Shown one piece after another: positions 1,410-55,735 of a DNA stretch of 64,000 bases. The notes beneath the pieces were generated by a model. That model was given only the letters and a program-made list of their open reading frames with translations. It ran no database searches and was not told the DNA's origin. Position 1 is the stretch's first letter, and the number at the start of each line of letters is the position of its first letter. The position numbers and the translations under genes are program-made. The stretch lies in contig NZ_CP020772.1 of the NCBI RefSeq assembly GCF_002097535.1, forward strand, positions 2,542,001-2,606,000, in the 5' to 3' direction. Source of the DNA: Halobacillus mangrovi (GTDB lineage Bacteria; Bacillota; Bacilli; Bacillales; Halobacillaceae).

Positions 1410-1429
1410 TCCTATATACCACCAAAAAA

Positions 1430-1458
1430 GCCATCCCGACGATTTAAGCCGGGATGGC
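1430..1458. terminator. Bidirectional terminator between speA and SR1
   Basis: A 9-bp perfect stem (GCCATCCCG / CGGGATGGC) with an 11-nt loop. Six T residues follow on the minus strand (SR1) and a shorter T run on the plus strand (speA). Confidence 0.85.
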
Positions 1459-1475
1459 TTTTCTATGAGGATCAA

Positions 1476-1589
1476 TTATTTCTTTTCTGATGTATTGCAA
1501 GTCGGACACGTGCTGTAAAGAGTAGAAACCTTCTCATTTTCATAATGCTCAATCACTTTTTGGCAGTCTTGACATACGATTGTACCCAT
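1476..1589 (-). CDS. sr1P: SR1P, GapA-binding small peptide
   Basis: A 37-residue peptide that begins MGTIVCQDC and carries two CxxC pairs (CQDC at residues 6-9 and CPTC near residues 28-31). N-terminus, cysteine spacing and length match the SR1P family, which in B. subtilis binds glyceraldehyde-3-phosphate dehydrogenase GapA and promotes its association with RNase J1. A good ribosome binding site (AAGGAG) precedes the ATG. Its position between speA and the pdh region is conserved with B. subtilis. rnjA, the proposed functional partner, is also in this window. Confidence 0.88.
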   Translation of the reverse strand: MGTIVCQDCQKVIEHYENEKVSTLYSTCPTCNTSEKK

Positions 1590-1608
1590 TACATCCACTC
1601 CTTAATAT

Positions 1609-1623
1609 TTGTAATCGCTTTCA
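1609..1623 (-). promoter_or_regulatory. cre site (CcpA operator) of SR1
   Basis: The minus strand reads TGAAAGCGATTACA, a perfect fit to the catabolite response element TGWAANCGNTNWCA. It lies at about +5 to +19 relative to the predicted SR1 start, where bound CcpA would block initiation or early elongation. In B. subtilis SR1 is repressed under glycolytic conditions by CcpN and, less strongly, CcpA. Confidence 0.8.
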
Positions 1624-1633
1624 CTGTAAGTTC

Positions 1634-1662
1634 ATTTTAATATGGCACAATCCAAAAATCAA
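1634..1662 (-). promoter_or_regulatory. Sigma-A promoter of SR1
   Basis: The minus strand carries TTGATT, a 17-bp spacer and TAAAAT. The predicted start is near 1627, directly upstream of the cre site and 38 nt before the SR1P start codon. Confidence 0.65.
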
Positions 1663-23797: not shown

Positions 23798-23961
23798 TAG
23801 GCTCATCCTTTCACATTCACTGGTCTATTGTATTAGTCTTTAGCTATCTCTATTTCCGTTATTCAATAAATGTAAACTAAATGAGTGAGCTGGGTGCTGA
23901 GCTAATGTTAATCATTCATTCAAATTAGAGAAATCTATTCTTCCATATAAGCCTCCTTTTC

Positions 23962-24415
23962 CAGAAGACTTGATTTCGAGATAATAGCTTTGTTTAGATG
24001 GGGCTATTTCCGTCACCTAGTCATCTGGAGAGGTGGTCGGGGAACTGGCGAGCCTCCTCGCTCGCTGCGCTCTCTGTGAGGTCTCGCCTAAGTCCTTCTC
24101 CCGCGGGAGTCTCGCCGTTTTCCATCCAACCCATCTATAGTGTAAGGAACGGCCCCATTTAACAGGAGTAAGGAAGCTCTGATTTCCAAAATTACAGATG
24201 GGTTTTCGATAACAATAACGTTTCCGTTCCTCCCAACAGCGGTAAGGAGGTCCGAGAATTCGCGAGACTCCTGTGGGATGAACATGATAGGTGAGACCCC
24301 GGAGAGCTTTAGCTCGAGGAGGCTTAGCCCATGCTCACGGAAAGCGAGTGATTTCTCGGACCTCCAAATTCTACTTTGGGCAACGGAAAGCTCACAGTAC
24401 CTCGAAATCGAGTAT
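23962..24415. repeat. Long palindromic intergenic element, copy A
   Basis: A non-coding block of about 454 bp. Its outer ends are inverted copies of a motif (CTTGATTTCGAGATA at the left; CTCGATTTCGAGGTA read on the minus strand at the right). Inside are two large palindromes: 24020-24125 (GTCGGGGAACTGGCGAGCC to GGGAGTCTCGCCGTTTTCC) and 24236-24365 (GGAGGTCCGAGAA to TTCTCGGACCTCC). A spacer with CGTTTCCGTTCC lies between. The left end is the reverse complement of the right end of copy B (47791-48460). No transposase or credible reading frame is present. Confidence 0.75.
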
Positions 24416-24486
24416 TCAACTATTCTGCTATATAGTTGAATAAATCATTCTGCAAGTTTTTAACACTCATTATATAAATAAAAAAC

Positions 24487-46122: not shown

Positions 46123-47658
46123 TTAACTTCTCACGTTAGTCTTCCATGCCTGATCGACATCTATCATCTTCTTCGCAGCATAGATAAGTAAAAATTGGAC
46201 GATGATGATCGGCAGTCCCATCAATCCTGAAATCACTTCAAGAGGTGGTAGACCCCCAATTCTCATCAACACTAGTGCCATTATTGTAATAACAGCCGCA
46301 ATGACAATTCGCAGCACTTTCGGCGGTTCAAACTTACTCATATCCCTTGTACTTGTGTACGCTGCTACCGTATATGTGGTGGAATCAAGCGTCGTTGTTA
46401 AGAAGATAAGCGCGACAATCATGAAAACAATAATGGAAAACTCGGCAATTGGCAAAGTAGATAAAATTTCAGGAATAGCTGCCATTCTTTCATTTTCTTT
46501 AACTAAATTTAATACAGAAAGATCTCCATTCAAATATCTGTGCACACCTAGTCCTCCAAGTACTCCAGTTGCAATCCATGAAATTAGTGTAGGAGCAAGG
46601 AGATACGTAAGAATCATTTCCTTAATCGTTCTTCCTCTTGAGATTTTTGCCGCAAACACACTGTGCAGCATAGCCCATGTGGCACTGTAGGCATACCAAA
46701 AAACCGTATTACTTTGAATATGAGAAGCTTTTCCTTCGTACACGGAACCCGTGTTAAGAGAAATGTTCAAGTATTTAGACAATAGAAAATAAACACTATC
46801 TGAAAAATAATTTAAGATGAACACGCCTGGTCCGGCAATAAGAATGAATACAGCAAATATTCCCGCCAAGTACATATTCCAAGTACTTAAGCGTTTGATT
46901 CCTTTTTCTATTCCTAAGTATGCACTCAGTGAAAACAAGAATACCCAAATAATCGTGACAATGATGGTCATTCCAAATGTCACGTCCATTCCTAATAATG
47001 CGGATAAGTTATGTGTAATTATTGGAGCTCCAAGCCCTAGCGTAACAGAAGCACCAGCCAATATACTGACTAAAAAAAGAATATCAAGTACTTTTCCTGC
47101 CCACCCATCTGTCAGTTTATCTCCAAAAATAACTCGACAGGCTTCTGAAATTCTCATTAATGGCCGTTTGCGGACATGCAAAATATACCCCATCGCAGGA
47201 GCGATCATTACGAAAATGGCAAAAACCTGGAACCCCCAGAGAAACATGCTATAGGCGTTTCCCCATAACAGAGCTTCTGTCGACCCAGGTTCTACTCCAG
47301 CTGGAGGATCGTTTGCTACAGACGTCCACTGCAACATCCCTGTACGCATGATGGTCGATCCAACTCCCATGGCGATTAAAATGGAGGCATATTCGAAAAG
47401 TGTAAATCGGGGCTTCTCTTTTGGATCACCAAGAACAACTTGACCATATTTGGAAAACGAAAAATATAGTCCTGCTGCAACGAGTATGACCCCGTACCAT
47501 AGATATCCCCAGCTGAACACTTCTACAATATAATCAAATATAGAATTTAATAGTTTCAGTGACTCCGCTTCATATAACGTAAACGGTATACTGATGGCGA
47601 TGATAATGATTAACGAAGGAACAAAAATCCCATAGTCAATCAAGTTTTTCTTTCTCAT
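46123..47658 (-). CDS. Atypical BCCT-family transporter
   Basis: A 511-residue, 12-segment secondary transporter of the BCCT family, but its substrate motifs are changed. Where betaine carriers have FYWAWWISWAP it has FWYAYSATWAM, i.e. three of four cage tryptophans replaced (Tyr, Tyr, Ser) in an ungapped alignment that continues into ISRGRTIKE. The glycine motif AGMGIGLVFWGAAEP is AMGVGSTIMRTGMLQW. The rest (SAYLGIEKGIKRLSTWNMYLA and TTTLDSTTYTVAAYTS) is normal. It probably carries another substrate or couples to another ion than the betaine carrier at 3863. ATG 47658 follows GAGGAGG by 5 nt; an extension to 47691 is unsupported. Confidence 0.85.
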   Translation of the reverse strand: MRKKNLIDYGIFVPSLIIIIAISIPFTLYEAESLKLLNSIFDYIVEVFSWGYLWYGVILVAAGLYFSFSKYGQVVLGDPKEKPRFTLFEYASILIAMGVGSTIMRTGMLQWTSVANDPPAGVEPGSTEALLWGNAYSMFLWGFQVFAIFVMIAPAMGYILHVRKRPLMRISEACRVIFGDKLTDGWAGKVLDILFLVSILAGASVTLGLGAPIITHNLSALLGMDVTFGMTIIVTIIWVFLFSLSAYLGIEKGIKRLSTWNMYLAGIFAVFILIAGPGVFILNYFSDSVYFLLSKYLNISLNTGSVYEGKASHIQSNTVFWYAYSATWAMLHSVFAAKISRGRTIKEMILTYLLAPTLISWIATGVLGGLGVHRYLNGDLSVLNLVKENERMAAIPEILSTLPIAEFSIIVFMIVALIFLTTTLDSTTYTVAAYTSTRDMSKFEPPKVLRIVIAAVITIMALVLMRIGGLPPLEVISGLMGLPIIIVQFLLIYAAKKMIDVDQAWKTNVRS

Positions 47659-47790
47659 GGAATCCTCCTCTATTTTTATTTGGTTTCCCACGCGTTGTCT
47701 TAATACCCTGTAAATGTCGATTTATAACAGAAAAATTCTATTTTAATATAACTATTTAGTTCATCATCGTTGTTCAATTAAATAGCAGTT

Positions 47791-48460
47791 ATCTTGAAGA
47801 CTTGATTTCGAGATAACTTCGGTTCGTAACTGTAAAAGTGTTAGGGATGGCTGGAAAATAACTCGCTTTCCTGTGGGGGGACTGCCGAGCCTCCTCATTC
47901 GCTGCGCTCACTGTGGGGTCTCGCCTGGGTCCTTCTCCCTTGTTCTATCCAGTTCCAGCGCCTAGCGGCTAGTGAGACTTCCCTCGCTTCTGTACGATAA
48001 GTCAACATCGAATTGCTTCGTTCTTCGTGTTTCCTTTATCTCCTCCAGCTCAGTCCAGTCCATACGCCGCTGTTCAAGGCGCTTCTACATTTAAATTGGG
48101 AGTCTCGTCATTTTCCAGCCATCCCAGCTGTCATTAATCTCTCAAACCCACCTAGTTACAGTATTAGAGTGAGGCTAGTTGAATTTCTATGATAAAAGCA
48201 TCTTGAAATCATTCCTATTCTGACAGGATAAACGAATACATTTCCATAGTGAATCATCTGTACTAAATGGACTGTTTCTACTTTTGCATACGTTTCCGTT
48301 CCACCAAAAAATAGCAAGGTGAGAAGGGAAATGGGGAGACTCCTGCGGGAATGGTATGGCTGGGAAGCGAGCCATTTCCCCGACCACCTCTCCAGATGAC
48401 TAGGTAACGGAAACACCCCCCATCTAAACAAAGCTATTCTCTCGAATCTAAGTCTTAAGG
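47791..48460. repeat. Long palindromic intergenic element, copy B (fullest)
   Basis: A 670-bp block without credible genes. The left end reads CTTGAAGACTTGATTTCGAG and the right end, on the minus strand, CTTAAGACTTAGATTCGAGA: inverted terminal repeats. Inside are a palindrome at 47848-48124 (GGATGGCTGGAAAATAACTC paired with TCATTTTCCAGCCATCC), split by a nested insert with CCAGCGCCTAGCGGCTAG, a spacer at 48125-48320 shared with copy C, and a second palindrome at 48325-48395 that has lost its centre. Right of it CGACCACCTCTCCAGATGAC and GGTAACGGAAAC match the left end of copy A inverted. Confidence 0.78.
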
Positions 48461-48533
48461 ATAAGGAGGCGATAGTTGAATAATGGGGTTCTATTTTACA
48501 AATCACGGGTATAAATCTTTTCTTACTAAAAAG

Positions 48534-48562
48534 GGACTATATCTTATTTCAAGATATAGTCC
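48534..48562 (-). terminator. Terminator of fadH
   Basis: A 12-bp perfect stem GGACTATATCTT / AAGATATAGTCC with a 5-nt loop; the minus strand continues CCTTTTT. It is about 100 nt after the fadH stop. Confidence 0.8.
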
Positions 48563-48660: not shown

Positions 48661-49428
48661 CTAAAATGGGAACTTGTTCAGCCACTGGCCGCCATCCAGG
48701 GTAACTACTTCCCCATTCATGTAAGATGCCTCTTCAGACAAGATAAACCGTGCAAGTCCTGCAATCTCTTCTGGTGTTCCTAACCTCCCAAGCGGCACTG
48801 AACTTAAGGTGCGTTTCGCAGCTTCTTCTGATTCAAATAGCCGATCTGCTCCCCCCGTCCGTTCAATTGGTCCGGGTGCAATGGCATTCGCTCGGATGCC
48901 ATACTTTTTCCCCCACTCCACAGCAAGAGTACGGGTCATCGCTAGTACTCCCGCTTTAGCTGATGCGGAATGAATAACCCCAGCCCCGGCATTCCACGCG
49001 TACGTAGCAACCATATTTAAAATCGATCCTTTAATCTTGTTTTCAATCCAGTAATTACCGACCGCCTGACTGCAGTAGAATGTGCCATTCAGTACGATAT
49101 TGATGACTGAATTCCAACCATTAGGCGAGAGCTTTTCAGCAGGCACTATGAAATTTCCTGCTGCATTATTGACAAGATGGTCGATTCTTCCGAAGGCTTC
49201 ATGCGTTTTATCAACCATTCGCTTAACATCTTCAACTTCCCGCACATCCATTTGAACCAATAACAGATGTTCTTCTTTTCCTTCTGCAATCTGTCGTTTC
49301 GCTTCTTCCAGCCGCTCCATGTTTCGGCCTGTAATTGCCACTTTTGCTCCTTCATCTAAGAACCGTTTTGCCATATAAAGGCCCATTCCACTGGACCCTC
49401 CTGTTACAATGACTACTTGATTTTTCAT
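48661..49428 (-). CDS. fadH: 2,4-dienoyl-CoA reductase FadH (SDR family)
   Basis: NADPH-dependent reductase needed to degrade unsaturated fatty acids with double bonds at even positions. The 255-residue protein has the cofactor motif TGGSSGMG, NNAAGNF, and the long signature APGPIERTGGA. The usual SDR catalytic YxxxK reads HSASAK, so the tyrosine is replaced by serine, as in the mammalian and B. subtilis dienoyl-CoA reductase group, where a nearby Tyr (TYAWNAGAG) serves. Sequence and location divergent from ykuE match B. subtilis FadH (YkuF). Confidence 0.92.
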   Translation of the reverse strand: MKNQVVIVTGGSSGMGLYMAKRFLDEGAKVAITGRNMERLEEAKRQIAEGKEEHLLLVQMDVREVEDVKRMVDKTHEAFGRIDHLVNNAAGNFIVPAEKLSPNGWNSVINIVLNGTFYCSQAVGNYWIENKIKGSILNMVATYAWNAGAGVIHSASAKAGVLAMTRTLAVEWGKKYGIRANAIAPGPIERTGGADRLFESEEAAKRTLSSVPLGRLGTPEEIAGLARFILSEEASYMNGEVVTLDGGQWLNKFPF

Positions 49429-55265: not shown

Positions 55266-55290
55266 GCATTTGTGCAACTAAATAGGAGGA

Positions 55291-55735
55291 TTCTTGAAGA
55301 CTCGATTCCGAGTTAACCTGGGTTCTTATTCTTATAAGAGTAGGGGTGTCTGGAAAATAACTTGCTGCATCGCCCAGCTGTCATTAGCCTCCCAAACCCA
55401 CCTAGTTTCAGTATTTAAAGTGAGGCTAGTTGAATTTCTATAATGAATGCATCTTGAAATACACTAGACTCCTGTTCTGACTGGATACATTTAAAGTGAA
55501 TCACCAGAATTAAAATGACGGTTTCTACTTTTGCATACGTTTCCGTTCCGCCAAAAAATAGCAAGGTAAGAGGGGAAATGGGGAGACTCCTGCAGGAATG
55601 AAATGGTTGGCAAGACCCCACAGAGAGCATAGCGAACAAGGAGGCTTGCCGTCATCCCCGCGGAAAGCGAGCCATTACCCCGAACACCTATCCAGAATAC
55701 AAGGTAACGGAAACAACGTAGGCTATATTGAGAAA
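55291..55735. repeat. Long palindromic intergenic element, copy C
   Basis: About 445 bp without credible genes. The left end CTTGAAGACTCGATTCCGAG matches that of copy B. A shortened remnant of the first palindrome (TGTCTGGAAAATAACTTGCT) runs into the spacer 55375-55560, which follows copy B closely (CCCACCTAGTT.CAGTATT, AGTGAGGCTAGTTGAATTTC). Then comes an intact palindrome 55571-55690: GGGGAAATGGGGAGACTCCT to CGGAAAGCGAGCCATTACCC, with an inner GGCAAG...CTTGCC hairpin. The right end keeps AAGGTAACGGAAAC. Confidence 0.78.

What the first reader, a model, noticed from the sequence alone, without database searches (positions are those of the whole stretch)
47791..48460. Large non-coding element with inverted ends and two internal palindromes
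Copy B is 670 bp with ends that are inverted copies (CTTGAAGACTTGATTTCGAG and, on the minus strand, CTTAAGACTTAGATTCGAGA). Between them are two long palindromes and a conserved spacer. It encodes no transposase or credible protein. The layout end-palindrome-spacer-palindrome-end is shared by copies A and C, so this looks like a defined mobile or structural unit, not chance. The 120-150 bp palindrome core (GGGGAGACTCCTGCGGGA ... CGGAAAGCGAG) recalls repeats I have seen in Bacillaceae; I do not know a description of the composite with these ends.
Basis: partly seen in the sequence, partly recalled or inferred. Interest (0 to 1): 0.8.

Follow-up and report, generated by a model that had tools for sequence, protein, structure and literature searches.

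The report
Twin-hairpin non-coding repeat with inverted ends
This stretch is one damaged copy of an abundant, apparently undescribed non-coding repeat of Halobacillus and related bacteria, built of two large folded hairpins between inverted ends, whose insides seem to be swapped between copies while the copies stay in place; in one relative it also houses the unexplained Bacillaceae-1 RNA.

Summary
Copy B belongs to a real dispersed family, but the element is 47770-48483 and copy B is damaged: hairpin 1 is split by another repeat (47940-48097) and hairpin 2 has lost its head. Intact copies read: end A, hairpin 1 (minus), spacer, hairpin 2 (plus), end B; no gene. In the own genome 54 of 56 neighbouring hairpin pairs are minus-plus (4.8 neighbour pairs expected by chance). 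A congener has 25 inward-facing end pairs in 400 kb. The hairpin (about 142 nt) has 40 pairs, 25 with two-sided changes. At sites shared by Halobacillus species, flanks (0.91) and outer tip (0.99) are inherited but interiors are not (0.67), and copies resemble copies of their own genome more than those of other species. In the 400 kb, 15 of 17 copies of the orphan Rfam family Bacillaceae-1 lie inside such elements. No transposase, target duplication or linked RAYT gene was found. Best reading: an old, non-autonomous, REPIN/MITE-like element, spread in trans by an unknown enzyme and homogenised by recombination. New variant of a known kind.

The parts
47770..48483 (.). whole element, copy B (TTG+TTC...GAA+TAA)
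   Evidence: end conservation over 47 copies; coordinates
47773..47816 (+). end A (terminal inverted repeat: outer 16-nt tip TTCAATTAAATAGCAG plus inner core GAAGACTTGATTTCGAGATAA)
47834..48130 (-). hairpin 1 (unit strand is minus), outer arms 47844-47862 / 48107-48125, split by nested repeat N; outer limits approximate
47940..48097 (.). nested repeat N (158 bp, a separate dispersed family) at the head of hairpin 1, CTCCC^GGGAG
48131..48307 (.). spacer between the hairpins, conserved within one subfamily; limits approximate
48308..48399 (+). hairpin 2 (unit strand is plus), 50 nt of the head missing compared with L005
48436..48480 (-). end B (inverted repeat: inner core plus outer tip GGATAAGGAGGCGATAGTTGAA)
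23938..24443 (-). copy A of the same element (end A on the right); hairpins at 24008-24141 (-) and 24236-24376 (+)
55270..55727 (+). copy C, damaged: end A, spacer, hairpin 2 (55555-55699); hairpin 1 deleted, end B not recognisable; right limit approximate
48534..48562 (-). terminator-like site of the neighbouring SDR-type gene (not part of the element, which lies just downstream of it)

Best explanation
A non-autonomous intergenic element: two copies of a conserved irregular hairpin in inverted orientation (minus, then plus), separated by a spacer and framed by about 45-nt inverted ends. Shown here: fixed ends, order and orientation; no coding capacity in the copies examined; a fold conserved across units; sites shared between Halobacillus species; inheritance of the outermost tip but not of the interior at shared sites; more likeness to own-genome copies than to other species' copies; nesting of other repeats and of Bacillaceae-1 in the hairpins. 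Inferred: copies were spread in the past by a trans-acting enzyme not yet identified, which recognised the ends or the folded single strand; today most copies sit still and are homogenised by recombination (gene conversion) with the inner end sequence as homology, or shrink by deletion between short direct repeats. Sites beyond gene ends suggest that insertions harmless to transcription survive. Any benefit to the host (RNA processing, transcript insulation) is unproven.
For: Ends: both found in 73 of 117 loci, 47 used for statistics. Pairing: of 148 hairpins in the own genome (150 scored of 755 first-look candidates) 56 neighbour pairs lie under 900 bp, 54 minus-plus, 1 plus-plus, 1 minus-minus, 4.8 expected in any order; in G298, of another family, 2 neighbour pairs among 150, 1 of them minus-plus. 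G010: 62 end cores in 400 kb, 50 of them in 25 inward-facing pairs of 186-1528 bp, longest open frame 116 aa, backward-pattern control 3 hits. Fold: 92.6% of cells paired (shuffles 78.7, slid 42-51), 25 of 40 pairs with two-sided change (shuffles 17.4). Strand: in pairs with a Watson-Crick majority G-U 39 against A-C 14 on the unit strand, 13 against 16 in the other strand's own fold. Exchange: 17 ortholog pairs: flank 0.91, tip 0.99, inner end A 0.80, interior 0.67; 352 unrelated pairs 0.59, 0.91, 0.80, 0.56. Best same-genome copy beats the best of an equal number of other-species non-orthologs for 24 of 31 copies (mean 362 against 211 bits, Wilcoxon p 0.0003); an ortholog scores no more than a random same-genome copy (167 against 159 bits over 40 directed comparisons).
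Against: No target-site duplication. No autonomous relative found. Of 30 order-wide loci with an end core only 3 hold a hairpin that the model sees, so the end core also occurs without it. The fold was derived from the alignment on which it was scored. With G-U-majority pairs included, G-U exceeds A-C on both strands (72:14 and 61:16), so the strand signal rests on the Watson-Crick-majority pairs. Mean interior identity is higher between orthologs (0.67) than between same-genome copies (0.60), it counts indels, and L128/L151 are 99% alike, so exchange is incomplete. Tip identity is inflated because loci were found by their tip. 37 of 148 hairpins have no neighbour. 44 of 117 loci lacked one or both ends.
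Confidence: 0.6

Rival explanations
1. Cassette exchange: the outer tip (TTCAACTAWATGGCAG..GTGGAA) is an attachment site that stays, and the twin-hairpin interior is a cassette that a site-specific recombinase removes and reinserts. The short alleles are then empty attachment sites.
For: Tips are inherited (0.99) while interiors differ at the same site; short alleles hold only a tip-like stretch plus TTGTGGAA or close to it at the L142 site in G011, G013 and G008 and at the L114 site in G007.
Against: The short alleles are equally explained by deletion between the direct repeats TTGTGGAAGA of inner end A and outer end B; no recombinase was sought genome-wide or found linked; intermediate lengths (208-275 bp; L145, L125, L095, L132) look like ordinary deletions; other sites keep a piece of end B or no remnant.
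Confidence: 0.15
2. REPIN-type element moved by a RAYT transposase as single-stranded DNA, with the hairpins as outsized REP units.
For: Inverted pair plus spacer is REPIN-like (passages of PMC3116915); irregular fold better on one strand; 17 of 22 Halobacillus genomes hold a Y1 transposase, and four of the five without it have the lowest first-look counts with copy B (26, 30, 33, 40; the 17 with it 48-252).
Against: The own RAYT-like gene is flanked by a different palindrome. Of 33 Y1 matches, 16 loci were examined: 1 has a hairpin (L278) and 1 a doubtful end core within the about 1.5 kb flanks. G021, without Y1 but fragmented, has 114 first-look candidates; the strict tip pattern is absent not only from those five but also from 7 of the 17 with Y1. 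Units are about 142 nt, not 20-40. Shared ancestry confounds the pattern.
Confidence: 0.12
3. Functional RNA or transcription insulator kept by selection: each hairpin, or the whole element, is transcribed and acts as 3'-end processor, terminator or sRNA.
For: Covariation and 27 invariant columns, many in internal loops; in the own genome 28 of 29 copies have at least one gene 3' end facing them; Bacillaceae-1, rated certainly an RNA by its authors (table passage), shares the unit strand in 10 of 10 cases where both models hit.
Against: Hairpins 1 and 2 use opposite strands, so one transcript cannot carry both in the conserved sense; sites and copy number vary among congeners; around copy B the terminator scan found only the SDR-gene site; no expression data.
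Confidence: 0.13

Closest known systems
REPIN / BIME (REP doublets, RAYT-dispersed)
   Same: two palindromic units in inverted order with a spacer, intergenic, high copy, no gene (REPIN features from passages of PMC3116915)
   Different: unit about 142 nt with an irregular fold instead of 20-40 nt; framed by long inverted ends; no linkage to the RAYT-like genes examined, three of which (L089, L271, L276) have their own palindrome
MITE (non-autonomous DNA transposon)
   Same: terminal inverted repeats, no transposase, dispersed
   Different: no target duplication detected and no parent element found
bcr1-bcr18 repeats of the Bacillus cereus group
   Same: dispersed non-coding repeats of 100-400 bp, mostly chromosomal, in a Bacillus group (passages of PMC6542083)
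   Different: bcr sequences were not at hand, so homology was not tested; twin hairpins and framed ends are not mentioned in the passages seen
Bacillaceae-1 RNA (Rfam RF01690)
   Same: found inside hairpins of this element in G010, G008, G148 and G292, on the unit strand where both models hit
   Different: a 67-nt motif only; the host hairpin itself has no match at or above an Rfam gathering score in the copies scanned

Membership tests
REPIN / RAYT system | two inverted palindromic units as a doublet | tested here: met
   54 of 56 neighbour pairs are minus-plus
REPIN / RAYT system | cognate unit flanks the RAYT gene | tested here: not met
   own RAYT-like gene flanked by another palindrome; hairpin near 1 of 16 Y1 loci examined, of 33 matches
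REPIN / RAYT system | unit of 20-40 nt | tested here: not met
   model of 142 positions
REPIN / RAYT system | GTAG-type tag at one end of the unit | not tested
   not examined
MITE | terminal inverted repeats | tested here: met
MITE | no transposase inside | tested here: met
   longest open frame 116 aa in 25 end pairs of G010; no Pfam match for the 116-aa frame that overlaps copy B
MITE | target-site duplication | tested here: inconclusive
   largest excess of matches 0.077 over 47 copies; insertions may be old
MITE | autonomous element with the same ends | tested here: inconclusive
   none in 25 end pairs of 400 kb of G010, nor in the part of the relatives' loci that was shown
bcr repeats | sequence homology to bcr1-18 | not testable with these tools
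   original paper not held
bcr repeats | TTTAT motif at the ends | not tested
   not examined
Bacillaceae-1 RNA | match to RF01690 at the gathering score | tested here: not met
   copy B, own copies L005, L030, L086 and solitary hairpins L258, L259 do not match; matches are to inserts inside other copies

The most novel reading that the evidence does not exclude
The orphan Bacillaceae-1 RNA is not a free-standing sRNA but an interchangeable head domain of a widespread two-hairpin element of the host's order, and the element is a self-homogenising cassette: the tips mark an ancient site, the interiors are replaced within each genome, and a dedicated enzyme that reads the folded strand moves or exchanges them.
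Probability: 0.25. Interest if true: 0.85.

Novelty: new variant of a known kind. Interest (0 to 1): 0.63.

Why it matters
Each of the two genomes counted holds about 150 or more of these hairpins, yet neither hairpin nor composite was found in Rfam 15 or in the held papers. If right, the finding gives an orphan RNA family a physical home, offers a Gram-positive counterpart of REPINs with no known mover, and shows a non-coding repeat evolving in concert while staying in place, which strain series and RNA-seq can test directly.

Tried and rejected
RAYT as the mover: one Y1 transposase in the own genome, flanked by a different palindrome; kept as a rival only. Autonomous element with the same ends: not seen in the own end-A loci printed, in the relatives' loci shown or in 400 kb of G010. 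Target duplication: none. Plasmids (one X-type copy) and phages (one Y-type copy): no blastn match. A strict end pattern in genome contigs found nothing; a second one hit three Halobacillus records. First strand tests on mismatches between arms and on a badly trimmed alignment were replaced by A1; one search pointed the other way (more wobble on the opposite strand: 146 against 230 and 139 against 237), but it counted fixed consensus mismatches and unpaired loop letters, so I do not rely on it.

Rows dropped before counts: of 73 copies with both ends, 14 as orthologous or duplicate and 12 for weak ends, leaving 47; 2 of 26 diverse units (L125, L132; odd flanks) before A1; L145; one weak antisense shadow of the 42 hits; seven relatives' loci with a tip-like match (L098, L100, L101, L103, L105-L107), as those seen lacked the inner core.

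Literature: PMC2267715, PMC6542083, PMC3116915, PMC3733652 and PMC2864571 were seen as passages only; PMC10969869 gave no passage for the terms tried; the other papers as search listings. GAGACTCCTGCGGGA is in no held paper; shorter words hit 225 papers, 20 of them listed, none on such a repeat by its title. Additional files of PMC2864571 were not read.

Full report
WHAT IS THERE. The window lies in a single-contig genome of 4,142,697 bases. Copy B sits between a BCCT transporter gene (46123-47691, minus) and an SDR-type dehydrogenase gene (48661-49428, minus) with a terminator-like site at 48562-48534. It begins about 50 bp past that site and ends about 80 bp upstream of the transporter gene.

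TRUE LIMITS. I fetched 40 own-genome places, 18 more and loci from relatives. The end search covered 117 loci (59 own, 58 from relatives; one own copy twice): both ends were found in 73. After dropping 14 orthologous or duplicate and 12 weak ones, 47 copies show conservation beginning at TTA|TTCAAC (0.88, 1.60 and 0.79 bits in the last three flank positions; 0.04-0.22 further out) and fading after GTGGAA|GAA (0.38, 0.70, 0.38, then 0.06). The element is therefore 47770-48483. The two ends share an inner core GAAGACTTGATTTCGAGAT and differ in the outer tip (TATAGCAG or ATGGCAG type, end A; GCCTCC or GCTCCC type, end B). No target duplication stands out.

COPY B IS DAMAGED. Hairpin 1 is split by repeat N (47940-48097), which also occurs alone (L010, L014 and others). 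In the loci fetched, 23 of 36 N copies with enough flank have a hairpin motif beside them, all 23 with GGAGTCT or a close variant on the same side. These loci were chosen by similarity to copy B, which holds both, so the fraction is biased; the constancy of side and orientation is the point. Hairpin 2 lacks 50 nt of its head compared with L005.

THE HAIRPIN. 24 diverse units, hairpins 1 and 2 both taken in the GAGACTCC...GGAAAGCGAG sense, align over 148 columns with 27 invariant columns. The consensus fold has 40 pairs; 92.6% of cells pair (shuffles 78.7, slid partners 42-51), 25 pairs have two-sided change (shuffles 17.4), 147 cells (shuffles 47.1); 'further pair types' is the weakest measure (62, reached by 2 of 500 shuffles). 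The fold was taken from this same alignment. The energy is -46.4 on the unit strand and -34.6 on the other. In pairs with a Watson-Crick majority, G-U stands 39 to A-C 14 on the unit strand and 13 to 16 in the other strand's own fold; with G-U-majority pairs included it is 72:14 and 61:16. Sequences are related, so this is indicative only. The favoured strand is that of the unit, and it is opposite for hairpins 1 and 2.

PAIRED BY RULE. With the covariance model R1 the own genome gives 148 hairpins (150 scored of 755 first-look candidates). 56 neighbour pairs are under 900 bp apart: 54 minus-plus, 1 plus-plus, 1 minus-minus; 4.8 expected by chance in any order. 37 have no neighbour, among them the window's copy B (its hairpin 2 is not in that list, though seen) and copy C (hairpin 1 deleted). 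In G298, of another family, 150 of 150 scored hairpins match (686 first-look candidates), and 146 have no neighbour; of the 2 neighbour pairs 1 is minus-plus. In 30 hairpin loci from 30 genomes of the order, 7 hold a minus-plus pair (L178, L179, L182, L183, L185, L200, L204).

DISTRIBUTION. A strict hairpin pattern is in 83 of 299 genomes and 38 of 116 genera of the order, backward control zero in the rows. The end core (up to 2 mismatches) is in 47 of 299 genomes and 20 of 116 genera, with 4 control hits in all. The two do not always go together. G249 and G292 have 83 and 64 end cores but no strict hairpin match, G271 has 39 hairpins and no end core. Of 30 loci with an end core from 30 genomes only 3 (L210, L211, L212) hold a hairpin that R1 sees; some of the rest show a short palindrome of end cores (L213, L214), and single weak matches may be chance. 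G010 has 361 end cores at up to 3 mismatches, control zero. In 400 kb of it 50 of 62 cores (up to 4 mismatches) form 25 inward-facing pairs; only inward pairs were sought. By extrapolation this genome has some 180-260 elements.

BACILLACEAE-1. Rfam finds Bacillaceae-1 (RF01690) inside elements at L212, L211 and L116. All 20 loci of the 400 kb of G010 were scanned: 17 hits (14, 2 and 1). 15 of 17 lie inside end pairs (0.67 expected by length); the other two are 253 and 807 bases from an unpaired end core. In 10 of 17 the hairpin model also hits, always on the same strand; in 7 it does not. 35 of 41 R1 hits there lie inside end pairs. One hit in the own genome (L077) lies where no element was found, so free-standing copies exist. 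The authors' table rates the motif Y, n, n: certainly RNA, probably not cis-regulatory, probably not a riboswitch.

STAYING PUT, CHANGING INSIDE. Eight sites are shared by two to four Halobacillus species, e.g. upstream of a ribosomal-protein gene (named from recall) in G007, G008, G002 and G016. Over 17 ortholog pairs identity is 0.91 in the flanks, 0.99 in the 16-nt tip A, 0.80 in inner end A, 0.67 in the interior, 0.87 in inner and 0.81 in outer end B. 66 same-genome pairs give 0.59, 0.92, 0.84, 0.60, 0.88, 0.75; 352 unrelated pairs 0.59, 0.91, 0.80, 0.56, 0.85, 0.73 (six genomes, interior identity counts indels). In 17 of 20 ortholog pairs at least one partner has a better-scoring copy in its own genome, for example 655 against 206 and 846 against 123 bits; 6 of the 20 have no ortholog hit at all, and L128/L151 are 99% alike. 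That comparison sets the best of several against one, so adds a control: the best same-genome copy beats the mean best of an equal number of non-orthologous copies of other species for 24 of 31 copies (362 against 211 bits, p 0.0003), and an ortholog scores no better than a random same-genome copy (167 against 159). So tips descend in place and interiors are largely exchanged.

EMPTY SITES. Twelve joined flank pairs were searched in seven congeners; many sites are occupied in several species. Of the 20 short or empty places fetched, at L142 G011, G013 and G008 have a tip-like remnant, at L114 G007 has one, at L126 and L133 relatives keep a piece of end B, and at L135 they keep short forms. At L091 (G002, G016, G008), L136 and L112 (G017) no remnant is seen, and at L090 G007 looks empty, but flanks are too diverged to place the junction. 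This fits loss by deletion or absence before insertion; it does not decide between them.

CONTEXT. Of 67 copies with usable neighbours 48 are tandem, 13 convergent, 6 divergent; orthologous copies are counted more than once. In the own genome it is 22, 6 and 1 of 29. Neighbours were called by a simple open-frame rule that looks only at the flanks, so it cannot show a gene that is interrupted.

MOVER. The own Y1 transposase (L089) is RAYT-like by sequence (recalled) and has its own palindrome on both sides; that palindrome also occurs at three places in the G010 sample. Of 33 Y1 matches in the genus, 16 loci were examined: 1 has a hairpin nearby and 1 a weak end-core match. 17 of 22 genomes have a Y1 gene; the five without are G005, G012, G014, G018 and the fragmented G021. 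First-look counts with copy B are 40, 33, 30, 26 and 114 in these, and 48-252 in the others; the strict tip pattern does not separate the groups. This is a weak and confounded hint.

CONCLUSION. The composite is real, defined and abundant. It works most like a REPIN or MITE but fails or leaves open key membership features. It is filed as a new variant of a known kind.

Noticed in passing
L212 1591-1657, L211 1348-1414, L116 978-1044; 17 places in L238-L257: Bacillaceae-1 RNA (RF01690) lies inside the hairpins of this element, at the same point in L116 and L211 although the hosts belong to different families.
   Followed up: partly
window 47940-48097; L010, L014, L112, L117: Repeat N, a separate abundant palindromic family, repeatedly sits at the same point of the hairpin head and in the same orientation.
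   Followed up: partly
L078 about 715-840 (as printed): A third palindromic repeat (GCGGAAGCGCC..GGGCGATGCAACTAGACG) is nested in a hairpin of an own copy.
   Followed up: no
L089 1291-1990; L271; L276: A RAYT-like Y1 transposase gene flanked by a palindrome CACCTCAGGTCATCCA..TGGATGACCTGAGGTG, also found elsewhere in G010: a possible Gram-positive RAYT/REP set.
   Followed up: partly
L213, L214 (G175, G117): Short palindromes of about 60 nt made only of two end cores facing outwards, without hairpins.
   Followed up: no
L258-L263 (G298): The same hairpin as a solitary unit whose outer stem ends near GTTGATT/AATCAAC, 150 of 150 scored places.
   Followed up: no
window 1425-1636: SR1 sRNA match on the minus strand (RF02376, 58.4 bits).
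   Followed up: no
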